This document shows, piece by piece, positions 13,439 through 25,693 of a stretch of 34,101 nucleotides of DNA. The stretch comes from a virus. The translations under genes were made by a program, and so were the position numbers. The stretch is from positions 1 to 34,101 of IMG/VR virus record IMGVR_UViG_3300032893_000203. One strand, given 5' to 3'. How positions within the stretch are numbered: position 1 is the first letter of the stretch; each line of letters opens with the position of its first letter. The notes under the pieces were generated by a model. That model had not been told where the DNA came from. It saw only the letters and a list, made by a program, of their open reading frames with translations, and ran no database searches.

Positions 13439-14029
13439 TTACCTCTTGTTCTTGCGGAACACTATGTAAACGTCGCCGCACACGTTGTTGTAATAGTAGA
13501 GGGCCGTTAGCTGGACCTCTCGAGAACGGGCCGTGTAGTCCTGAATGCCCGGGACGGCCGGGGCCACGATCTGATAGGACGATTGAAAATCGAAGTCGCT
13601 CTGAATCGGGTAGTGGGCAAGCTTGTTGGCTTCACGCCAATTTTTGTTGAAATAGAGGGCCTTCTGCTCCGGGAACGGCGCTTTATGGGTCGGGTCCTGC
13701 CACTGCCGGTGCGAGTTCCAGGCCGGCACGATGACCGTCAGCGTGCCTTTGGCCGACGCGCCTTCCGGTTCCGAATACTTGAGGACCCGGTAAGCCTCGT
13801 CGATGATCTTGATCTGATCTTCTCCGTGGAAATGCTCCATCACGTGGCTGCAGTGTAATTCGTCCACTGAGGAGTCAGCGAAGGGCCAGGGCAGGTCGAG
13901 GAGGTCATGCACGATATCGGACCCGGGCATCCGGTCCATGCCGGTAAAGCCTTCTCGCTTGTTCTGACCGGAACCGAGGTCAATGCGGACCAGTGAAGGG
14001 GCGGCGGGCTGTAGAGTTCCATCGTTCAT
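13439..14029 (-). CDS. Class I SAM-dependent methyltransferase (196 aa)
   Basis: The start at 14029 lies right behind the dehydratase stop (TGATATG). Motif I is clear as IDLGSGQNK (residues 16-24), with Asp32 in position to bind the SAM ribose. A VDELHCSHVMEHF block (residues 55-67) is typical of the Methyltransf_11-like family, with the conserved HVMEH. It is coupled to a dehydratase and a glycosyltransferase, so the likely substrate is a sugar or glycosylated surface or fibre component. That substrate is inferred. DNA methylation is unlikely because no DPPY/NPPY motif is present. Confidence 0.8.
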   Translation of the reverse strand: MNDGTLQPAAPSLVRIDLGSGQNKREGFTGMDRMPGSDIVHDLLDLPWPFADSSVDELHCSHVMEHFHGEDQIKIIDEAYRVLKYSEPEGASAKGTLTVIVPAWNSHRQWQDPTHKAPFPEQKALYFNKNWREANKLAHYPIQSDFDFQSSYQIVAPAVPGIQDYTARSREVQLTALYYYNNVCGDVYIVFRKNKR

Positions 14030-14030
14030 A

Positions 14031-15044
14031 TCACGCTACCTCCGCCGTCAGAGGCAGTCCCAGTTGCCATTCCGGGTGAGCCATGGTCCAGTCCACGACT
14101 TGACACAGGCGCTCCTGGAACGGGAACCGGGGGCGCCAGCCCAACAGCGCCATCTTAGAGCCGTCGAGGGCATAGCGCAGGTCGTGGCCGGGCCGCGACG
14201 AATGGAAGTCCACAAGTTCATGGATAAGCGGGCGGCCTAGATACTCGGCCACCATTTCGGCGAGTTCCAGGTTGTTGACCTCGCGCTCCCCGACGATGTT
14301 GAACTTGTCGCCCGGCACGAAGTAGTAGTAGATGAGGAAGCGCAGGGCCTCCGCCACGTCGGAAGCGTGGATGTAGAAGCGCGACCCCGGACGGGTCCGG
14401 GACGCATCGGCATGGATGGTTACCTTTTGCCCACGGGCCACTCGGACGATGGTACCTGGGATGAACTTCTCCGGATGCTGACGTTCTCCGAAGACGTTCA
14501 TGCAATGGACGATGGCGACCGGCACCTTATAGGTGTTGTGGAAGGCGAGGCAGAGTTCTTCCGCGCCCGCCTTTGTAGCAGCATACGGGTTGCCCGAATG
14601 ATAGTGATCCCACTCCTTGTGCGAGCCGGTAATGGCTGGTCCAAAGACCTCGTCGGTACTGAAATAGATCATGCGTCCGCAACCGACCTTTCGGACGTAG
14701 TTGAGAAGGTTGCAGGTCCCGACGACGTTGTCCTGGACGAACGACAACGGGTCATCGATGGAGCGGTCCACGTGCGTGGCCGCCGCCAGATGCAGGACCA
14801 CGTCGAAATGACCCAGCTGCATACTCAGCTGGTCCCCAAATTCGGAACGGAGGTCGTGGAACTTAAACTGCACCCGACCCTCATGGCGGTGCTTGTGGAA
14901 ATCGGCGATCTCGACCAGCCGCATCAGGTTCCCATAGCCGTCGAGCCGGTCTAGCAGCGTCAGGTTCCAGTCCGTATTCTTGAGCAGGTGGGCCACGACG
15001 TGGTGGCCGATGAAACCCGCTCCCCCGGTGATTAGTACCCTCAA
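14031..15044 (-). CDS. NAD-dependent epimerase/dehydratase, RmlB-like (337 aa)
   Basis: An extended short-chain dehydrogenase/reductase. It has the NAD-binding GGAGFIG at residues 7-13, an STDEVFG block (residues 129-135) with the Thr-Asp-Glu seen in dTDP-glucose 4,6-dehydratases, and the catalytic YxxxK as Y154/K158 (YAATK). A VFGERQHPEKFIP stretch matches the RmlB 'R-Q-x-PEK-IP' block. It probably converts a nucleotide-sugar to a 4-keto-6-deoxy intermediate. Length is normal for the family. It stands between the glycosyltransferase and methyltransferase genes in one transcription unit. The exact nucleotide-sugar is not readable. Confidence 0.85.
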   Translation of the reverse strand: MRVLITGGAGFIGHHVVAHLLKNTDWNLTLLDRLDGYGNLMRLVEIADFHKHRHEGRVQFKFHDLRSEFGDQLSMQLGHFDVVLHLAAATHVDRSIDDPLSFVQDNVVGTCNLLNYVRKVGCGRMIYFSTDEVFGPAITGSHKEWDHYHSGNPYAATKAGAEELCLAFHNTYKVPVAIVHCMNVFGERQHPEKFIPGTIVRVARGQKVTIHADASRTRPGSRFYIHASDVAEALRFLIYYYFVPGDKFNIVGEREVNNLELAEMVAEYLGRPLIHELVDFHSSRPGHDLRYALDGSKMALLGWRPRFPFQERLCQVVDWTMAHPEWQLGLPLTAEVA

Positions 15045-15056
15045 CTTATCCTCCCT

Positions 15057-15797
15057 TTACCAGACTGTGTCGGTAGACTTGTCGTAGTGCCCGACTTTGA
15101 TGCGGTTGTCGCTGGCCACGCGGGCACCGTACTTGGCCGCCTGATCAAAGAACCACAGGTCCTGTGTGAACGCCTTTCCTCCCACGTTGGGATTCCATTC
15201 CTGAACCGTCTTGAACCATTGCCGGATGCCATGTTCGTTCTTCGGCATGTCGGGCGCCATGCGCTCCAACAGTTCCATGCGGAACAGAGTAAAGCCCATG
15301 CCGAGGCCGTTGCACGGTTGAATCTGGTCAGGGATCGGAACTTGCGGCACGAAGTTCCGGGGGATGACGTGGGGGGCGCCATAGATCATCGGCTGACCCT
15401 CGTCGCCCTTGGTCCAGTAGAGGCCGCCGACCACGTCGTATCCCTTGATGCTCTCCATCAGGCGCAGAATGCCGTCTGGCGGCGGAATGTTGTCGTCCTC
15501 GAGGGTGAGCATGTAGCGAAACGGGCGCCCTTTGTTGTTCCGGATGTTCACGTTGGTGGCGATGATGTTCTCCACCGCCCGGTTATAGGCGTCGCCGACT
15601 TCGAATCCGGCCATGAACTCCGGTCCGGCGCACACTTGGTTCATCGGACGCATCAGGCTCAGCCAGGATGCCACCACCCGGGCCGGAATCTCGCCCCGAG
15701 TCGGAACCACGATGATCGTGGTCAGGTCGTCGTAGGAACGGCCTCGCTGCAGCCGAGCGATGCTGTCCGCCATGCTCTCGTTATGCTTCCCTACCAT
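15057..15797 (-). CDS. GT-A-type glycosyltransferase (family 2-like, 246 aa)
   Basis: The N-terminal block TTIIVVPTRGEIPARVVASW is the nucleotide-sugar binding start of GT-A enzymes. LEDDNIPP (residues 99-106) provides the metal-binding acidic motif, and GGLYW, CNGLGMGFTLFR and a late TQDLWFF...GHYD (residues 211-239) fit acceptor and metal-binding positions. The ATG at 15797 lacks a ribosome site. An in-frame ATG at 15773 (residue 9) has AGGGAAG 12 bases upstream and may be the real start. It lies directly after the big fibre gene, so fibre or surface glycosylation is a reasonable inference. A candidate promoter lies just upstream. Confidence 0.78.
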   Translation of the reverse strand: MVGKHNESMADSIARLQRGRSYDDLTTIIVVPTRGEIPARVVASWLSLMRPMNQVCAGPEFMAGFEVGDAYNRAVENIIATNVNIRNNKGRPFRYMLTLEDDNIPPPDGILRLMESIKGYDVVGGLYWTKGDEGQPMIYGAPHVIPRNFVPQVPIPDQIQPCNGLGMGFTLFRMELLERMAPDMPKNEHGIRQWFKTVQEWNPNVGGKAFTQDLWFFDQAAKYGARVASDNRIKVGHYDKSTDTVW

Positions 15798-15841: not shown

Positions 15842-18800
15842 CTATAGAGTAAAGTTCACGGCCTGCATCCAAATATTGCGCATATGGGTAGACTGAGATG
15901 CCACAATGTGACTGAATGCTACTGTATCATTCAGCGTAGTGGAACTGGCACTATGGGCACCCCATCCATAAATGAATTGTTGAGTAGCATTGGATGCAGC
16001 CCCGAAATCACCGCTAAATGCCGCACCGACGCCACCCGTGGGGGGATTGGCCACAAAATAGGACACAGTAATTTGTCCGCCAGAAGTTCGTACCCATTGC
16101 CCAATCCAATATTCACCCGGAGTCAAATTCATATTCATTGAGAAAGTCAGACGCCGAAGGCCATTATAACTAGAATTACTTTGCACTCCAGTAAATGAAA
16201 TACCAAAAGACCCACTACCGGTGCTCAACTGGCTTAATGTCGAGCCGTTACGAGAATAGATGCCAAAACCAAGCGAGACTGTACCAGTGATGGTACCGGT
16301 ACTGCCAACCGTCTGCGACATCGCAAAGTCAATGCGGCTGGCACTATAATAACGGTCTACTTTAACCGGAGCATAATGCGCTACTGCATTGGTGTCGTTG
16401 ACCTGGGCGCCATAGGCGATGGGTCCCAATGGTAACCATTGACTTAATGTCAGCGACTCTCCGAAGGAAACGGTAGCACTGTCGCCGCTGCTTGATTGCG
16501 ACAGACCGTCCACCCCAGTCGCTACCAACACGACCCGATTGCTGGCAAGTCCGCTGGTGCCAGCCGTGTTGCCTAGGTTGCTGATGCCAACCGAAAGAAG
16601 AGTCGGCCCGGAGATGGTGACCGTGGCAAAGCCGCCGCCGGCCGTTCCCTGGCTGAGCGTGATGTTGTTGGAGCCGACCAGGACGATCTGTGCATCATTG
16701 TCGGCCCGGGTCTGGCCGGATGTGTTGCCGCCCGTGGACACGCCGGCCTGAAACGCCGGATGGGCCGAAATAGTGACCGTGGCCGACGAGCCGTTTATCG
16801 ATTGGCTGAGCGTGATCTGGTTGCCGCCGGCCAGGATGAACTGTAGGCCGCTGCCGGTAATGACGCCGGACGTGCCGACGAAGTTGCCGAGATTGCTGAT
16901 TCCCAGCGTGTTGGTTCCGGCCGCCCCACCGCCGGCCCCACCAAAGATGCTGATAGTGCCGCCGCTGGCGTCGGTCGTCTGCGACAGGGTGATGTTATTC
17001 GAGCCGACGAAGATGAGCCGCGTGCTGGTCGCCCCGGTCGCGCCGCCCGTGTTGCCCATCGTAGATACGCCGCCGACGAACGGCGGATTTGCAATAAAGC
17101 TTTGCGTTACCGAGGCACCGTTGACCGACTGGCTGATTGTCAGGTTGCTAGTGGCGATGATGACCGCGCGCACCTGGGCGCCCGATGCCACGCCGCTGGT
17201 ACCCAGCGTGTTTCCGAGGTTGCTGGCACCGATCGACTGCGACTCCTGCGACTGGGCCGCAACGGAGACCGACAGAGTAGCCGACGATGCGTTAGTGGAC
17301 TGGCTGATGGTGACGTTAGGCCCGCCGACGACGAGCATCTGCAACTGATTGCCGGAGATCACGCCGGAGGTACCGGCCGTGTTCCCGATGTTCGACATGC
17401 CGAAAGTCTGGCTCTCGGCCGTCTGGGCAGCAGCGGAGATGGACAGGGTCGCAGAGGACGCATTGGTCGACTGGCTGACCGTGATGTTTGGCCCGCCCAC
17501 CACCAGCATGCGCAGCTGGTTGCCGGAAATCACGCCAGAGGTCCCGGCAGTGTTCCCGATGTTCGACATGCCGAAAGTCTGACTCTCGGCCGTCTGGGCC
17601 GCCGCCGAAATGGATAGGGTAGCAGAAGATGCATTGGTTGATTGGCTGACAGTGATGTTTGGTCCACCCACTACCAACATCTGCAGCTGATTGCCAGAGA
17701 TAACGCCGGATGTGCCGGCGGAATTCCCCAGGTTTGACATGCCGAAAGTCTGGCTCTCGGCTGACTGCGTAAAATTGATGCTTACCGTGGCACCACCAGC
17801 GCCAGTTGACTGCGACAATGAGATGCCGTTGGTGCCGACCAGCACCAGCTGGGTACCAGATACGCCAGTACTACCGGCCGTGTTGCCGAGGTTGGAGACA
17901 CCAGCCGAGAACGCTCCGCCGGATGGTGACGGTCCGATGATCGTTACAGCATTGCCACCGTTCTGGCTAAGCGTGATGTTGGCGCCTGCCGCCAGCGTCA
18001 AAGTACCAGAAGATATCAGGGCGCCGACGCCCGCCGTATTGCTCGAGATGGTGAGTGCGAACAAGTTCTGCGTCTGCACCGACTGCGGAGCGGCCGAAAT
18101 AGACAGCGTCGCGCTCGATGCATTAGTAGACTGCGATACCGTTATGTTAGGCCCGCCGACCACCAACATACGCAGCTGATTGCCGGAAATGACCCCCGAC
18201 GTGCCGGCGGTGTTGCCAATGTTTGACATGCCGAAAGTCTGACTTTCGGCCGTCTGCGCCGCCACGGAGACGGAGACCGTGGCTGATGATCCATTGGTCG
18301 ACTGCGACAGAGTGACGTTAGGGCCACCGGCCAGCAACATCCGCAATTGATTACCGGAAATGACACCCGACGTGCCGGCGGTATTTCCAATGTTCGATAT
18401 GCCGTAGGTGTTGGACTCGGCACTCTGGCTGGCCCCGGATATCGTGATTACGTTGCCAGCCTGAGACAGGGTGATATTGGGACCGCCGGCCAGCGTCATG
18501 GTGCCAGACGATATCAAGGCCCCGGCTCCTACCGTGTTCCCCGACATCGTAAGATCGAACAGATTTTGTGTCTGCACTGACTGGGCCGGGGCCGATATGC
18601 TGATCGTCCCTCCATTCGGACTGGTGTCTTGCGACAGGGTGACGTTTCCGACGCCGGCCAGGACCAGCTGGCTCCCCGTGATGCCGGTGTTGCCCAGCGT
18701 ATTTCCGCCGGTCGACACGCCGCCGGAGAAGGACGCCCCGCCGCCGACGCCGGCCGAAATACTGAGTGACTGCCCGTTTTGGGACAGAGTGATGTTGGGG

Positions 18801-19057
18801 CCGCCGGCCAGGAACAGGGTCCCGGTAGAGACCAGACCGGGGACGCCGGCCGTATTGCCGCCGGCCGACACTGCCAGTCCGGCTACGGTCGCCCCGCCTC
18901 CGAGGGCTGACGCCTCTATATATACGTTAGTGCCATGCTGCAGGATGACGGCAAGTTCGGTGCCGTCGAGCGGCGTCGTGGCCTTAGGAAGTACGGCGGT
19001 GGGAAACCGTTCTACGTCCAGAGGCGCAGCGGCGGACGGGGTATCTAGGATCGTCAT
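15842..19057 (-). CDS. Giant repeat-rich tail fibre (1071 aa)
   Basis: The ATG directly follows the previous stop (TAAATG). After a 60-residue head, about 15 repeats of roughly 54 residues run to about residue 865. Each has a core [IVM]SN[IL]GNTAGTSG, a short variable part, then [LV]GGPNITLSQSTN and an SSATLSIS-like strand. Such GN/LSQST beta-repeats are found in long phage side fibres. The last 200 residues (SQWLPLGPIAYGAQV... to AVNFTL) are a distinct, aromatic-containing domain and the likely receptor-binding tip. Its DNA (15842-16450) is clearly AT-richer than the repeats. No intramolecular chaperone motif was recognised. Confidence 0.85.
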   Translation of the reverse strand: MTILDTPSAAAPLDVERFPTAVLPKATTPLDGTELAVILQHGTNVYIEASALGGGATVAGLAVSAGGNTAGVPGLVSTGTLFLAGGPNITLSQNGQSLSISAGVGGGASFSGGVSTGGNTLGNTGITGSQLVLAGVGNVTLSQDTSPNGGTISISAPAQSVQTQNLFDLTMSGNTVGAGALISSGTMTLAGGPNITLSQAGNVITISGASQSAESNTYGISNIGNTAGTSGVISGNQLRMLLAGGPNVTLSQSTNGSSATVSVSVAAQTAESQTFGMSNIGNTAGTSGVISGNQLRMLVVGGPNITVSQSTNASSATLSISAAPQSVQTQNLFALTISSNTAGVGALISSGTLTLAAGANITLSQNGGNAVTIIGPSPSGGAFSAGVSNLGNTAGSTGVSGTQLVLVGTNGISLSQSTGAGGATVSINFTQSAESQTFGMSNLGNSAGTSGVISGNQLQMLVVGGPNITVSQSTNASSATLSISAAAQTAESQTFGMSNIGNTAGTSGVISGNQLRMLVVGGPNITVSQSTNASSATLSISAAAQTAESQTFGMSNIGNTAGTSGVISGNQLQMLVVGGPNVTISQSTNASSATLSVSVAAQSQESQSIGASNLGNTLGTSGVASGAQVRAVIIATSNLTISQSVNGASVTQSFIANPPFVGGVSTMGNTGGATGATSTRLIFVGSNNITLSQTTDASGGTISIFGGAGGGAAGTNTLGISNLGNFVGTSGVITGSGLQFILAGGNQITLSQSINGSSATVTISAHPAFQAGVSTGGNTSGQTRADNDAQIVLVGSNNITLSQGTAGGGFATVTISGPTLLSVGISNLGNTAGTSGLASNRVVLVATGVDGLSQSSSGDSATVSFGESLTLSQWLPLGPIAYGAQVNDTNAVAHYAPVKVDRYYSASRIDFAMSQTVGSTGTITGTVSLGFGIYSRNGSTLSQLSTGSGSFGISFTGVQSNSSYNGLRRLTFSMNMNLTPGEYWIGQWVRTSGGQITVSYFVANPPTGGVGAAFSGDFGAASNATQQFIYGWGAHSASSTTLNDTVAFSHIVASQSTHMRNIWMQAVNFTL
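16460..18877 (-). repeat. About 15 tandem ~160-bp repeats encoding the fibre shaft
   Basis: Period is about 160 bp (about 54 residues). Units near 17290-17460, 17460-17620, 17620-17760 and 18120-18250 encode almost the same protein but use different synonymous codons. Flanking units are more divergent in protein. Approximate limits were set where the GNTAGTSG core begins and ends. Confidence 0.85.
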
Positions 19058-19351: not shown

Positions 19352-20431
19352 CTATGCCCTCGTATACCGTCTCAGGTTATAACTGATCTGTATCGGGCTG
19401 CGGTCGCGCTCCTCCATCATCGCAGGCATGTTAGCCTGCTGAACGTTCAGCGCAATGTTTGCCTTGGTGTCCGGGTCCACTTCTCCCGGCATTTCGTTGG
19501 CGATGGACTGGGCCAGACTCCAGGTCATGGCCTCATACCATCGTCTCGGAATTTCGATGGCCTGATTGACGTTCTGTACGTCGGCGATGTAGCGGGACCG
19601 CCACACCAGCAGGCAATTGAGAATTTCGGCACCGCTGGGCGGCGGCCACATAGTGATGATGGGCTGGTCCATCTGCCGGTTTAGCCAGTACTGCAGCGGA
19701 CGGCCCTGGCTCGTCTTGTTCGGCTGCAACAGGTACTGGTCGCGGTTCATGCGGTACATCAGAGTGTCGAGCGGATAGGACGACACCACCAGTTCCCGCA
19801 AGTTCAACGTGCCACCGCTGGTCTCCCGCACGCGGAACAACAGGGCCGAGGCCGGCGACGCCACGTCATACCACGCCCATTTCTTGTCCGGGTAGGAAGT
19901 CGCCACTTCGCCGAACGGAGGATCGATAGTCTGAACCAGCGTCCAGGTGACGCCGTCATTCGATGCCTCAAACACGAGGTTGTAGAACTGGTCGCCGTTC
20001 GGCATAAACCCAACCAGAGTTACCGGCACCGGCCCCAGCGTCTGAACCTGGATCGATCCATTGGGGGCAGTCTGCGTGCACGACGTGGACAGGTCGCCAT
20101 CGTCCGCATTAGCGGCGATACCGCCGTCCGGTGAAATATAGGAGTCGCCGACACGCGGCACCGTCCGATAGAAGGCCTTGAGCACGTCGACGGTGCCGGC
20201 CGGAAGCTGCACTTCCGCTTCGCCTTGGTAAAGGCCCAACACCAGCTTGTCCTGACACCACAGCGGCAGCTTGCTGTTGCTGATGTGATACAGGATCAGC
20301 TGCATGCACTCGCGCCCGATGCCCAGCATTTCGGACGTGACTTTTTGGGCTGGGAAGCCGGCCCGCCGAAAGGCATGGTCCAGCATCTTGGCCAGAGTAA
20401 AGGTAGTGGCGCCGACCGACTGGTCTACCAT
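19352..20431 (-). CDS. Neck/adaptor-like structural protein (359 aa)
   Basis: The ATG at 20431 overlaps the end of the preceding small gene by seven bases. An N-terminal helical part ([15 protein letters not shown]..., [12 protein letters not shown]) is followed by [15 protein letters not shown] beta-sandwich-like insertion (about residues 110-215) has [13 protein letters not shown] and [19 protein letters not shown], resembling discoidin/F5-8C-type carbohydrate-binding modules. The C-terminal helical block ([28 protein letters not shown]) is typical of phage adaptor-like proteins with IPRRW. It probably sits in the head-to-tail connector, with the insertion facing outward. Functional assignment is inferred. 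Confidence 0.7.
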
Positions 20432-20622
20432 TTCATCTTCACCAGACCGCCGCCGGCCTTCTTAGTGGCCGATCTTGCGGAGGGTCTCGAGTGCTTCGGA
20501 TGCTTTGGGTGCGCTGTATTCAGCGCTGCTGCCACTGCCTGATCCTGTGGATGCCCCGCCTTGATCATCTCGCGGATGTTCTGGCTGATCGTTGCCTGAC
20601 TTGTTCCCTTCTTGAGTGGCAT
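20425..20622 (-). CDS. Small MPLKKG-type phage protein, nested out of frame (65 aa)
   Basis: The start at 20622 has an excellent ribosome site, AAGGAGGAA seven bases upstream, located inside the 93-aa gene. The sequence [20 protein letters not shown], then [17 protein letters not shown], matches a very common family of small phage proteins (typical form: MPLKKGKS..TISANI..E...G.P..QAVAIAL). Function is unknown. 161 bases of the gene are shared with the 93-aa gene in another frame, and its end overlaps the next gene by seven bases. The C-terminal [12 protein letters not shown] is basic. Confidence 0.82.
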
Positions 20623-20743
20623 CGCCCAGTTCCTCCTTCAACTTGCGGAGATAGCGCAGCGCCCGGCCGATCATGTAGCCGGCCTCGTTGTCGTGCCGTA
20701 AAGCTATGCCGACCAGTGCGTCGATGTCGTCCTGCAGACTCAT
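20462..20743 (-). CDS. Small helical protein, dual-coding with the MPLKKG gene (93 aa)
   Basis: It starts in an ATGA overlap with the preceding gene. Residues 1-40 ([20 protein letters not shown], then [20 protein letters not shown]) look like a genuine two-helix protein. From residue 41 on, where it overlaps the MPLKKG gene, it becomes low-complexity (Gly/Ser/Gln/Asp rich). That suggests this tail is constrained by the other frame. Function is unknown. Confidence 0.68.
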
Positions 20744-21993: not shown

Positions 21994-22278
21994 TTACCCC
22001 CAGTAGATGCTGATGTCGCCCGATGCCGGCACCGTGTCGACGTAGATGCCGGTCTGAACGCGGATCGGGGCGTCTTCGAAGAATGCCTGATCGCCGACCG
22101 CCAGCGTCTCGTCAAAGATGACCTGACCGCTGGCGCCGCCGTCACGCAGCTTGTAGGCCCCGGCCCCCGCATTGCACTTGATGCGGGTGATGCGCATGGC
22201 CGTGGCCAGAGCGGCCGGAGAGGTCCCGACTTGCCCAACCACGGCATGCTGGACTTGACGAATCGTGTTGTAACTCAT
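21994..22278 (-). CDS. Small beta-rich structural-type protein (94 aa)
   Basis: Strong ribosome site (AAGGAGAGGG) five bases before ATG 22278. The sequence MSYNTIRQVQHAVVGQVG, then AMRITRIKCNAGAGAYKLRD, and VIFDETLAVGDQAFFEDAPI, is predicted to be all-beta and ends GDISIYWG. Small beta-barrel proteins of this kind in phage head/neck regions are usually virion components. The family is not recognised by name. Confidence 0.75.
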   Translation of the reverse strand: MSYNTIRQVQHAVVGQVGTSPAALATAMRITRIKCNAGAGAYKLRDGGASGQVIFDETLAVGDQAFFEDAPIRVQTGIYVDTVPASGDISIYWG

Positions 22279-22313: not shown

Positions 22314-22880
22314 CTACTGGCTCACCGGGGCGTCGCTGCCGGAGGCCGCAGTGTCGTCACCGCTCGAGACCGGCGCCGGGTCAGGCGTCGGGGCCGGCTC
22401 CGGCGCGGGTGCCGGCAACGGATTGGCGTCGATGGCCGCCTGCACCTTGGTGCTCTCCAGGTTCGACATTTCGACGATCTTGTCGATGCCGCTCTGCTGC
22501 TCCGGCGTCAGACCGGCCGGCGGAATCTTGGTGGCCGCGTCGTGGAGTTCCTGGACGAGAGTGATCAACGAATCGACCTTGCCGGACTGGGCCGTGACCG
22601 CATCCAATGCTTCCTGTACTGTGCTCATGATGTCTCCTGCCATCTGATTGAGATTGTCGAGCCTCTGGTTGATCTGGGCCAGCGTCCGCTCGATGTTCGT
22701 TGACCCCTGAATCGGACCACCCCCGGGCGCGGGCGGCGAGCCGAGACACAAGATGACGAAGCCGTCCCTCTGCAGGATTTCCCGGCACTCCAATCCGTAC
22801 GACTTGCGCGCAAATTCGCGAATGTTCCCATGTACTTGGCACAGGGCATTATAGTCGTAGTTGTGGAGTTCCAGGATCAA
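22314..22880 (-). CDS. Paralogue D: small repeat-family domain fused to coiled coil (188 aa)
   Basis: TTG start at 22880, overlapping the previous stop as TTGA, with GGGAG upstream. Residues 8-48 (NYDYNALCQVHGNIREFARK, then GLECREILQRDGFVILCLG) align without gaps to the two genes just upstream. The rest is a coiled coil (NIERTLAQINQRLDNLNQMA..., TVQEALDAVTAQSGKVDSLI) and a Pro/Ala-rich tail. An internal in-frame ATG at 22628 has a perfect AGGAG five bases upstream, so a 104-residue C-terminal product is possible. Function unknown; likely a virion or assembly protein. Confidence 0.72.
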   Translation of the reverse strand: MILELHNYDYNALCQVHGNIREFARKSYGLECREILQRDGFVILCLGSPPAPGGGPIQGSTNIERTLAQINQRLDNLNQMAGDIMSTVQEALDAVTAQSGKVDSLITLVQELHDAATKIPPAGLTPEQQSGIDKIVEMSNLESTKVQAAIDANPLPAPAPEPAPTPDPAPVSSGDDTAASGSDAPVSQ

Positions 22881-23116
22881 TTGTCGCTCCCATCGGATGC
22901 CACTGGATCGCCCAGGTGCAGTTCGACGTGGTTGGACATCTGCTTCGCCTTGCGAACCTCACGCCCCAGGCGATCGGCCGCCCAGTTGCGGATGTTGCCG
23001 AACTGCTGGCACAGCGTGTTATACTCGGCCGTGGCCATGCGCAGGATGTCCTTGAATCGTTCGCGGCGCTCCGCCATGATGTCGGCCATCGGGAGCGATT
23101 CCTTCGGATCGTTCAT
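22877..23116 (-). CDS. Paralogue C: small repeat-family protein (79 aa)
   Basis: ATG 23116 overlaps the previous stop as ATGA behind a purine-rich GGAGGAGGAAG. Residues 32-62 carry the shared domain (YNTLCQQFGNIRNWAADRLG, then REVRKAKQMSN), ending in VELHLGDP. The N-terminal 25 residues are charged and helical. Function unknown; see the finding on the four tandem paralogues. Confidence 0.75.
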   Translation of the reverse strand: MNDPKESLPMADIMAERRERFKDILRMATAEYNTLCQQFGNIRNWAADRLGREVRKAKQMSNHVELHLGDPVASDGSDN

Positions 23117-23280
23117 TGGCTTCCTCCTCCTCCATTGATGGGTCCTACCGTCAGTTCGACCTCGTCATTAAGCTGGGCGAGAGCGATCAGACGGCGCTTC
23201 ATCACGTGCCTCAACATGGCCTCGACGCTACCATGCTCCTGGCAGCGCTGATCGAAATCTTCATTCGACATCCGGACCAC
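23113..23280 (-). CDS. Paralogue B: small repeat-family protein (about 55 aa)
   Basis: Start choice: GTG at 23280 has AGGGAAGG seven bases upstream. A TTG at 23319 (68 aa) has only GGTGAG three bases away, and ATG 23271 has its ribosome site too far off. The domain reads DFDQRCQEHGSVEAMLRHVM, then KRRLIALAQLNDEVELTVGP, aligning without gaps to paralogues C and D. It ends in a Gly-rich tail. Overlaps the next gene as ATGA. Confidence 0.72.
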   Translation of the reverse strand: MVRMSNEDFDQRCQEHGSVEAMLRHVMKRRLIALAQLNDEVELTVGPINGGGGSQ

Positions 23281-23323
23281 GTTGAAACCTTCCCTAGTGA
23301 TACCAGGATCATGTCGCAATTGC

Positions 23324-23530
23324 TCACCCGACCACTAACCCTCTCATCTGTCGCCGTTCGAAGAGAGATACCTCCGGCCCCATCAAGAGTTCATACATGT
23401 CGTCATGAACTCGGACCACCTTCTTTAGTTCTCGGCCGTGCTGTAAGGCGACAAACATGGTGAGATTGCCATATTTGGCTTCAATCTTCTCACGCATGCC
23501 CCCCGACATGTACAGCACGTCCGAGGTCAT
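23324..23530 (-). CDS. Paralogue A: small repeat-family protein (68 aa)
   Basis: ATG 23530, three bases after the preceding stop, with no clear ribosome site, so it is probably translated by coupling. Residues 13-48 (REKIEAKYGNLTMFVALQHG, then RELKKVVRVHDDMYELLMGP) match the other three small proteins with one single-residue gap. It lacks the Cys-Gln pair of the others (I16-E17-A18 here). Most divergent member; function unknown. Confidence 0.72.
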   Translation of the reverse strand: MTSDVLYMSGGMREKIEAKYGNLTMFVALQHGRELKKVVRVHDDMYELLMGPEVSLFERRQMRGLVVG

Positions 23531-23533
23531 CGA

Positions 23534-24298
23534 TTACGACGCCGCCAAGTTCTGGTCGACGCCATAGGCACCGATGCGGTTGGCATTCGGACCAGACGCA
23601 ATGGCCGGCACGCCGATGCCCATGATGAGCCGCTTGGTGCCGTCCGTGGCGCTCGACGGGACGTAAGTCCCGCGCACGTCACCGGTCGAAGTAGTGGCCG
23701 GCGAAGTCTGATCGGCGACCACCAGGGTGCCGGTGTCGCGGGCCAGGGTGTTGTTCCACGACGGGTCGCAATAACCGCGATCCGTGACGCGCACCGGGAT
23801 GCCCAGGATGTCGGTGGAACCAGCCGACACGTTGTTGGTGGTGGCGCCGTCGACCGCTACCGTCAGGACCTGATAGAAAGCCTTCTTGCCGTTGACGGTC
23901 GAAGAGGCCGCGACGTTCGGAATGAGTTCCGACATCTTCTGGCCATAACGGTCGTAGCCAGTGACCGTATAGCTGCGCGTGGTGGCGCCGGCCGCCGCCG
24001 TGATCGACACCGCACGCGGAACGTCCAGCTGGTAGACCGTCTCGCCGCGCCCGTTGACGACGGCAGTGACGCCGCCGACGCCGGCCCGCAAGGTGAGGTT
24101 GCCGGCGGCCGCATAGGTGGCGAGGGCCGACAGGGCGGCGGTGTTGAGGGTCACCGGGACCGTGTCCCACAGGTAGTAGCGGCCGAGAGGGCCGATGCCG
24201 AACCCGCCGGTTGGCACGGCAGCGCCGGCCGCCGGCAGCGGGTCGGAGGGAGTCAGCTTAGCATTGCCGAGGTAAACGTCGTCTGACCAGTGTGGCAT
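23534..24298 (-). CDS. Head/neck structural-type protein (254 aa)
   Basis: The correct start is ATG 24298 (MPHWSDDVYLGNAKLTP), six bases after an AGGAG site. The open frame continues upstream to 24430, but that part lies inside the HNH gene. The protein is Ala/Gly/Thr-rich and beta-like (NLTLRAGVGGVTAVVNGRGE, ATTRSYTVTGYDRYGQKMSE). It ends GIGVPAIASGPNANRIGAYGVDQNLAAS. It sits right after the capsid/HNH genes, so a head-decoration or head-completion role is probable; no firm family is recognised. Confidence 0.72.
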   Translation of the reverse strand: MPHWSDDVYLGNAKLTPSDPLPAAGAAVPTGGFGIGPLGRYYLWDTVPVTLNTAALSALATYAAAGNLTLRAGVGGVTAVVNGRGETVYQLDVPRAVSITAAAGATTRSYTVTGYDRYGQKMSELIPNVAASSTVNGKKAFYQVLTVAVDGATTNNVSAGSTDILGIPVRVTDRGYCDPSWNNTLARDTGTLVVADQTSPATTSTGDVRGTYVPSSATDGTKRLIMGIGVPAIASGPNANRIGAYGVDQNLAAS

Positions 24299-24304
24299 TA
24301 GTAA

Positions 24305-24320
24305 CTCCTCATGAAAGGAG
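24305..24320 (-). promoter_or_regulatory. Hairpin covering the ribosome site of the 254-aa gene
   Basis: On the minus strand CTCCT (24316-24320) can pair with AGGAG (24305-24309) across a six-base loop. The AGGAG arm is the ribosome site of the next gene, and the hairpin lies across the HNH stop codon. Ribosomes finishing the HNH gene would open it, coupling the two genes. Confidence 0.4.
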
Positions 24321-24713
24321 GTTGCGCGAAAGCCGTCGCACGCGGTCGAAGAACTCATCGTCCTGCATCGCCATCCGGGCCGAGTTGATCCAGAAGGCCA
24401 CGAGCCGGACGTTACCGGGGACATAGCCAAGTGATGGTTTAACCCGATCGATGCTGCAGGCCATGGGATTGGCTAGTTCCGACCCCAGCAGTAATGGCTC
24501 TTTTGATAGGGCACACTTTCCACCCTGTTTATTCCACAAACCAATTAAGTCGTCATGAGTCAAAGTGCACTGAACGCCGGCAACTTTGCAACGGTGCTTT
24601 AAGCGACGAATTCGTAAAGACAGGGCACCGCGCACAGTCTGTTTATAACGCAGATTGTGCGCGGCCTGGGCAATTCGTTCTTCTCTGGTAGAGCCGGCAT
24701 GAATGGTCGGCAT
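24309..24713 (-). CDS. HNH-like endonuclease, probably selfish insertion (134 aa)
   Basis: Strong ribosome site GGAGGA before ATG 24713. The N-terminus is very basic (SLRIRRLKHRCK). LIGLWNKQGGKCALSKEPL is followed by CSIDRVKPSLGYVPGNVRLV (residues 86-105) and Asn110, the compact 'IDR...GY.PGN.RLV....N' form of phage HNH nucleases, where the first His is replaced by Asp-Arg. It nicks or cuts DNA and typically spreads as a free-standing homing gene. It sits between the major capsid gene and the next structural gene. A sampled 60-base line (24541) is 48 percent GC versus 63 percent in a neighbouring structural line (17461), consistent with recent transfer. Confidence 0.75.
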   Translation of the reverse strand: MPTIHAGSTREERIAQAAHNLRYKQTVRGALSLRIRRLKHRCKVAGVQCTLTHDDLIGLWNKQGGKCALSKEPLLLGSELANPMACSIDRVKPSLGYVPGNVRLVAFWINSARMAMQDDEFFDRVRRLSRNLLS

Positions 24714-24781: not shown

Positions 24782-25693
24782 CTACAACCCTTGATTGCCC
24801 CACACCGTGCGCCAATCGGTCCAGCCCTCGTCATATCGCTCGGTGGACTTGTAGCGCATGGAGTCGGTCTCGAAGTCGCCTTCCATGGACTTCTCCAGCC
24901 CACGACGCTTCTTGATCTGCAGGCCCCGGTCCGCGTCGGTCAGAATCCACCACGCCGTGGCGGAGGTCAGACGCGCGAGGTTGGCCTGCCCGCCCGCCAG
25001 CAGCCCCATCGACTTGATCGGGTTGATGTCGTTGTTGGCGGTGCCGGTGCGCAGCACGCTCTTGAGGATCACTTCGGTCTGGAACACGTTGGCCGGGGCA
25101 GCGATGATCTTGAGCGGGTTGAGCCGGATGCGCTTGCCGGTGTGGTCCACCGCGTTGCGGATGGCAACCAATGCCTGCTCGATCGCCGTCTGCGACAGAG
25201 CCGCAGCGGTGAGCAAGTTGGATGCCGTACCGACGACGATGGGATGCGAGGCCGACACCAGCGGCACACCGTCGCCGCCGGGGTAGGACGCATTGAAGGA
25301 CCGGTTAAGTTGGTTGGCGCACAGCGTCTCCTTCGTCTCGATGAGAGACTGCGCAAGGTGACGGCTGTAAATCTGGCCGATGCGGATGTGGTCGCCGTCC
25401 TCAACCAGCACCTTCGTCAGCGCGAAGGCTAGGCCGTAGACGCGATACACGTACCGCTTGATGAACAAGACGCCGCCCTGGTCGTAGTTGACCGGGAGGC
25501 CGTCCGGAAGTTCGGGCGCCGCGCCAAAGCCGTAGAGCATCGGCTCTTCGTGGTAGTTGCGGGCGATACCGGTCTCTTCCTTGAAGCACTGCTTCCACTC
25601 ATCGGCGCGCTGATCATAGACGCCGTCGAACTCCTCGTTGAGGATCGGCTCGACGATGGAGCGGAAGTCAGTAGACCGCATTGGATTTGCCAT
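24782..25693 (-). CDS. Major capsid protein, Mu gpT-type HK97 fold (303 aa)
   Basis: Ribosome site GGAAG before ATG 25693. The order of blocks follows the Mu gpT-like capsid family: FDGVYDQRADEWKQCFKEET; YDQGG...YRVYGLAFALTKVLVEDGD; ETLCANQLNRSFNASY; GDGVPLVSASHPIV. Then come QTAIEQALVAIRNAVDHTGK and a C-terminal STERYDEGWTDWRTVWGNQG ending. Length is normal. It builds the icosahedral shell. The scaffold-like, GroES-like and decoration-like genes upstream are its likely assembly partners. Confidence 0.88.
   Translation of the reverse strand: MANPMRSTDFRSIVEPILNEEFDGVYDQRADEWKQCFKEETGIARNYHEEPMLYGFGAAPELPDGLPVNYDQGGVLFIKRYVYRVYGLAFALTKVLVEDGDHIRIGQIYSRHLAQSLIETKETLCANQLNRSFNASYPGGDGVPLVSASHPIVVGTASNLLTAAALSQTAIEQALVAIRNAVDHTGKRIRLNPLKIIAAPANVFQTEVILKSVLRTGTANNDINPIKSMGLLAGGQANLARLTSATAWWILTDADRGLQIKKRRGLEKSMEGDFETDSMRYKSTERYDEGWTDWRTVWGNQGL

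What the first reader, a model, noticed from the sequence alone, without database searches (positions are those of the whole stretch)
22314..23530. Four tandem paralogous small proteins, one fused to a coiled coil
Genes at 23530-23324, 23280-23113, 23116-22877 and 22880-22314 share an approx. 42-residue domain: [YF]...CQ.[FH]GN[IV], then G.E[VLC], then [VI]-L-x-LG.P. B, C and D align without gaps; A needs one single-residue shift. Overlapping stop/start codons keep them in one unit. The helix-strand pattern resembles LysM-like or tail-X-like modules, but weakly. A four-step duplication in the neck region may build a hetero-ring or a host-specific variable set.
Basis: seen in the sequence. Interest (0 to 1): 0.72.

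Follow-up and report, generated by a model that had tools for sequence, protein, structure and literature searches.

The report
Tandem orphan paralogs in phage head operon
A short-tailed phage carries four neighbouring copies of a small, fast-changing protein found in only one other sequenced relative, the last copy joined to a coiled coil that may also be made on its own; it is a real but modest curiosity, and its function is unproven.

Summary
Genes A-D (23530-22314, minus strand) share one ~48-residue domain. Shuffle z-scores are CD 20, BC 9.7, BD 9.1, AC 7.2; A-B and A-D are weak alone. Both AlphaFold2 models, of C and of A with only B as partner, give strand-helix-helix-strand-strand. It is not LysM or tail protein X, and no library (Pfam, PHROGs, NCBIfam, PADLOC, PDB) holds it.

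The family was found in one other genome, a sister phage (L097; MCP 93%, whole window syntenic). It has an A orthologue (42%), one B/C/D-type gene (X) and a separate coiled-coil gene. So there are two subfamilies, A and B/C/D/X, the second with three copies here. D is domain plus coiled coil in frame. Codon 85 of D has its own ATG and AGGAG, the only such case among 190 internal ATGs in 28 genes, so D probably yields two products.

A-D sits between the protein after the capsid gene and the tail adaptor, and is among the fastest-evolving segments shared with the sister, yet under purifying selection. Best reading: accessory head/neck proteins held together by D's coil (inference; a host-directed role is a close rival). 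'Hetero-ring' is untested; 'variable set' is partly supported.

The parts
23324..23530 (-). Gene A (68 aa): domain at residues ~5-53 plus C-terminal helix; starts 3 nt after the stop of the preceding gene, no SD, probably translationally coupled
23113..23280 (-). Gene B (55 aa, GTG start; a TTG at 23319 is less likely)
22877..23116 (-). Gene C (79 aa): domain at residues 24-71 with a disordered N-terminal arm; ATGA overlap with B
22314..22880 (-). Gene D (188 aa): N-terminal domain, linker, coiled coil, Pro/Ala-rich acidic tail; TTGA overlap with C
22314..22628 (-). Probable internal start inside D (ATG 22628, AGGAG 6 nt upstream): free coiled-coil protein of 104 aa; the sister phage has a separate coiled-coil gene in this place
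23534..24298 (-). Protein after the capsid gene (p298; true length 254 aa, ATG 24298), in the slot where phage DSL-LC04 has an annotated cement protein; 83% identical in the sister
24782..25693 (-). Major capsid protein (Pfam PF25209 Phage_capsid_4)
21994..22278 (-). p94, small protein directly downstream of D, also fast-evolving (39% to the sister over 46 aa)
19352..20431 (-). p359, tail adaptor (matches the annotated tail adaptor of Roseobacter phage CRP-901)

Best explanation
A-D are four paralogs of an orphan phage domain of about 48 residues with the predicted topology strand-helix-helix-strand-strand, made in the head-gene operon. SHOWN: common ancestry; two subfamilies (A, and B/C/D/X) that predate the split from the sister phage; fusion of the last copy to a coiled coil; coding constraint together with fast divergence; tight gene coupling. 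INFERRED: translation of A is coupled to the preceding protein (p298), so A is made together with it. D is translated twice, from TTG 22880 as domain plus coil and from ATG 22628 as a free coil, which keeps the separate coil product that the sister encodes as its own gene. A, B and C (same fold) and D associate, with D's coil as the oligomerising hub and spacer and its acidic Pro/Ala tail projecting. The assembly is a non-essential accessory of the head or head-tail junction that changes quickly, as surface-exposed virion parts do.
For: Homology. Same fold for A(+B) and for C in separate predictions (pLDDT about 72-84 for residues 1-60 of A, about 90 for residues 31-70 of C). Position between capsid gene/p298 and tail adaptor, conserved in the sister. 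Sister arrangement A'-X-separate coil. Internal start: only 1 of 190 in-frame internal ATGs in 28 genes has AGGAG/GGAGG 5-12 nt upstream, and it is D codon 85 (true starts: 8 of 28). D's frame is continuous through domain, linker and coil by codon usage. Divergence: A 42%, B/C/D 32-37% against 68-93% for most other shared proteins; pS 0.81-0.86 against pN 0.42-0.50 for A, B and D. Precedent for an in-frame internal start in a head gene: Mu and P. aeruginosa Mu-like protease/scaffold (PMC4378225).
Against: No evidence places these proteins in the virion. Relatives lacking the domain fill the same slot with unrelated proteins, so the domain has no conserved role in this phage group. The sister's coil gene is not significantly similar in sequence to D's coil (z -0.4), so the counterpart claim rests on position and architecture. 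No oligomer was predicted. p298 as a decoration protein is positional only.
Confidence: 0.4

Rival explanations
1. A-D are non-virion accessory proteins carried as cargo in a variable slot of the late operon: small host-directed or counter-defence proteins whose fast divergence and duplication reflect an arms race.
For: Among the highest protein divergence in the shared region while still under coding constraint; copy number differs between two close relatives; slot content is unrelated in other relatives; no known family; small soluble proteins.
Against: They sit inside the morphogenesis genes rather than in an early region; A is tightly coupled to the preceding protein in both phages; the neighbours p94 and p415, of the same slot, diverge quickly too, so speed is a property of the slot; a coiled-coil fusion is more usual for structural parts.
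Confidence: 0.33
2. They are assembly chaperones or regulators of head completion: the domain proteins bind p298 or the connector during assembly, and the coil oligomerises them transiently.
For: Gene position and coupling; internal-start pairs are known for assembly proteins (PMC4378225).
Against: Assembly factors are usually conserved with their clients; the client candidates are 73-93% identical while A-D are 32-42%, and most relatives lack A-D.
Confidence: 0.2
3. Only B, C and D are homologous; A is an unrelated small gene with a chance resemblance.
For: A-B and A-D pair scores are near chance (z 1.5 and 3.5); A' of the sister scores z 1.5-2.0 against B, D and X.
Against: A-C z 7.2, A-X z 8.1, A'-C z 4.6; a profile of the four window copies picks out only A' and X in the sister; A folded with only B gives the same topology.
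Confidence: 0.07

Closest known systems
Sister phage IMGVR_UViG_3300032893_000041 (64,240 bp, unannotated)
   Same: Same gene order across the window; A orthologue, one B/C/D-type gene and a coiled-coil gene in the same slot
   Different: Two domain genes instead of four; coil is a separate gene in another frame; no HNH gene between capsid gene and p298
HTVC023P-type / CRP-901-type podoviruses and Caulobacter phage RW/KcrB group
   Same: Capsid protein 36-74% identical; same order capsid, small late genes, tail adaptor
   Different: The slot holds unrelated small proteins; no copy of the domain in the whole records searched
In-frame internal-start head genes (Mu and P. aeruginosa Mu-like protease/scaffold, PMC4378225)
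   Same: A strong SD and start codon inside a longer head-operon ORF, giving a second C-terminal product
   Different: Here the first product is a short orphan domain and the second a coiled coil; neither protease nor scaffold similarity; initiation not shown by experiment
LysM domain / phage tail protein X
   Same: Strand-helix-helix-strand start and similar size
   Different: A third strand, no Pfam match up to E 10, no LysM among the top structural matches
Small phage orphans in BFVD, e.g. A0A868BR68 (54 aa), DUF7428 (Citrobacter phage Moon, 53 aa)
   Same: Short phage proteins aligned over about 50 residues with TM-score 0.57-0.58 by target length
   Different: E-values 0.17-0.6, not significant; no sequence similarity; not recovered in the listed matches of the A model

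Membership tests
LysM (PF01476) / tail protein X | Profile match above the curated cut-off | tested here: not met
   No Pfam match for A, B, C or D domain at E up to 10
LysM (PF01476) / tail protein X | Strand-helix-helix-strand fold matching LysM structures | tested here: not met
   AlphaFold2 gives strand-helix-helix-strand-strand; no LysM in the top 50 of PDB Foldseek, no match with E <= 0.001
LysM (PF01476) / tail protein X | Binding of peptidoglycan or chitin | not testable with these tools
   needs a binding assay
One paralogous family A-B-C-D | Sequence similarity beyond composition | tested here: met
   Shuffle tests; A linked through C and X only
One paralogous family A-B-C-D | Same fold in each member | tested here: inconclusive
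   C (alignment of all four) and A (with B only) have the same topology; B and D were not folded on their own
Gene with in-frame internal start (Mu-type head gene) | Strong SD and start codon in frame inside the ORF | tested here: met
   ATG 22628 with AGGAG at 6 nt; unique among 190 internal ATGs
Gene with in-frame internal start (Mu-type head gene) | Second product made in vivo | not testable with these tools
   needs ribosome profiling or a tagged protein
Virion (decoration/neck) protein | Present in the purified particle | not testable with these tools
   no proteome for this phage; position only
Virion (decoration/neck) protein | Sequence similarity to a known decoration or neck family | tested here: not met
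   No PHROGs, Pfam, NCBIfam or PDB match
Known anti-phage defence proteins | PADLOC model match | tested here: not met

The most novel reading that the evidence does not exclude
A new self-assembling phage module: duplicated copies of one small domain form a hetero-oligomer on the head or neck, nucleated by a copy whose gene makes both a domain-coil fusion and the free coil from an internal start, so that one operon sets subunit diversity and stoichiometry and can swap copies quickly between related phages.
Probability: 0.12. Interest if true: 0.65.

Novelty: new variant of a known kind. Interest (0 to 1): 0.36.

Why it matters
It is a compact example of tandem duplication, subfamily split and fusion in a phage head operon, seen in two stages in two close relatives, with a nested start codon that may preserve both products after fusion. 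The short genes and the exact start site make the dual-product claim cheap to test. The domain itself is an orphan that present libraries do not hold. Fast-changing, copy-variable genes in late operons are otherwise common in phages, so the broad pattern is not surprising.

Tried and rejected
Direct scans of IMG/VR with C, with D, with p94, with a C+D alignment and with a degenerate DNA motif CQxxGNI-x8-GxE gave no relative; the nine motif matches were chance. GTDB genomes scanned with C+D and A+A' alignments: none. tblastn on 50,697 phage records with C, D, X and A': no match better than E about 0.7. A 23-residue hit in G008 (E 0.017) lies in a 38-aa ORF and was taken as chance. A ribbon-helix-helix or Fis-type HTH reading was considered from the motif and dropped because of helix length and the third strand. 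An assembly frameshift as the source of D's fusion was tested by segment codon usage and not supported. An alignment of all four was too divergent for a scan. dN/dS for A could not be given because synonymous sites are saturated.

Full report
CHECK. The four genes exist as described. Pair tests against 5000 shuffles: C-D z 20.3, B-C 9.7, B-D 9.1, A-C 7.2, A-D 3.5, A-B 1.5. A six-frame search of the record with C finds D (2e-8) and B (5e-4). A profile of the four finds only these four ORFs in the window. Coding log-odds support the minus-strand frames over the other minus-strand frames, though A and B are weaker (0.11) than C (0.52), and one antisense frame of B scores 0.10.

FOLD. AlphaFold2 of C with the other three as alignment: E24-28 H29-39 H42-50 E52-59 E63-71, pLDDT about 90 over residues 31-70. 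A with only B as partner, so without information from C or D: E2-7 H10-20 H23-31 E33-42 E45-53 and a C-terminal helix, pLDDT 72-84 over residues 1-60, two of five models clearly better than the rest. Foldseek gives no match with E <= 0.001 in PDB or BFVD; the nearest are short phage orphans; no LysM in the listed matches. Pfam, PHROGs, NCBIfam, PADLOC and PDB sequences hold no relative.

SURROUNDINGS. The window is a linear IMG/VR record with terminase, portal, GroES-like, scaffold-like, capsid (PF25209), the protein p298, A-D, p94, p415, p65, the adaptor p359 and a repeat-rich fibre. Capsid relatives are HTVC023P/CRP-901-type podoviruses and Caulobacter phages RW/KcrB (PMC10149686, PMC9599517). 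p359 matches the annotated tail adaptor of CRP-901. In DSL-LC04 the gene after the capsid gene is annotated as cement protein; p298 has that position, without shown homology.

RELATIVES. 80 loci fetched by the capsid protein and 79 of the 80 fetched by p298 show no copy of the domain; where the slot is covered it holds other small proteins. Whole-record searches of 121 related records (114 IMG/VR, 7 named; many are fragments) found it only in the sister phage, apart from one 23-residue match taken as chance. The sister, L097 / IMGVR_UViG_3300032893_000041, is syntenic over the whole window: TerL 80%, portal 69%, capsid 93%, p298 83%, p359 73%, p96 79%, tail proteins 63-78%, but A 42%, D/C/B against X 37/34/32%, p94 39%; scaffold-like 50%, p415 45%, p93 49%; HNH absent. 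Sister layout: p298 stop, 4 nt, A' (ATG 6764), X (GTG 6969, 8-nt overlap with A' end), 59-nt gap, coil gene (ATG 7319, 72 aa, other frame), p94-like. Tree: A with A' 99% / 0.99; B, C, D, X unresolved. Hence two subfamilies in the common ancestor, and three copies of the second here.

RATE. pN 0.42 (A-A'), 0.46 (B-X), 0.50 (D-X), 0.55 (C-X) and 0.53 (p94) against 0.07-0.21 for the other twelve shared genes measured; pS 0.81-0.86 for A, B and D, and 0.64 for C, exceeds pN, so the genes are under coding constraint. Synonymous sites are saturated, so no dN/dS is claimed for A, B or D.

D AS TWO PRODUCTS. D's codon usage is in frame through domain (0.14), linker (0.37) and coil (0.37). The heptad pattern at D 63-90 is reached by 0 of 500 shuffles, that of the sister coil region by 1 of 500. 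ATG 22628 (codon 85) has AGGAG 6 nt upstream; among 190 in-frame internal ATGs of 28 genes it is the only one with AGGAG or GGAGG 5-12 nt upstream, whereas 8 of 28 true starts have it. The sister carries a separate coil gene with its own AGGAG in this place. The two coils are not significantly similar in sequence, so this is correspondence by place and architecture. In-frame internal starts in head genes are known from Mu-type protease/scaffold genes (PMC4378225).

FUNCTION. The favoured reading, an accessory head or neck assembly built on D's coil, rests on gene position, coupling and the coil. A host-directed role is nearly as likely on divergence and copy-number grounds. The tools here cannot decide; virion proteomics would.

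VERDICT. Observation confirmed, interpretation partly supported, LysM/tail-X rejected, duplication history refined, and a probable nested gene in D added.

Noticed in passing
24309-24713: HNH-like free-standing ORF (134 aa, low codon fit -0.12, GC3 0.58) between capsid gene and p298; no match in the sister phage, and another relative (L047) has a different HNH-like ORF at the same place: a homing-endonuclease-like insertion site.
   Followed up: partly
13439-15797: NAD-dependent epimerase/GDP-mannose-dehydratase-like gene (Pfam E 4e-48) beside what look like glycosyltransferase and methyltransferase genes inside the tail region; the first two (p337, p246) are conserved (71-77%) in the sister.
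   Followed up: no
15842-19057: 1071-aa fibre-like protein with internal repeats (171-bp tandem array 17252-17761); repeats may recombine between phages.
   Followed up: no
20425-20743: p93 and p65 overlap in different frames (20462-20622); both have homologues in the sister (49% and 60%), and p65 matches phrog_2423 (2.5e-15), so a genuine overlapping gene pair is likely.
   Followed up: partly
19352-20431: Tail adaptor p359 carries a possible inserted F5/8 type C-like (discoidin) region at residues 102-174 (Pfam E 6e-4, below cut-off); the sister's p359 is 73% identical over its full length.
   Followed up: no
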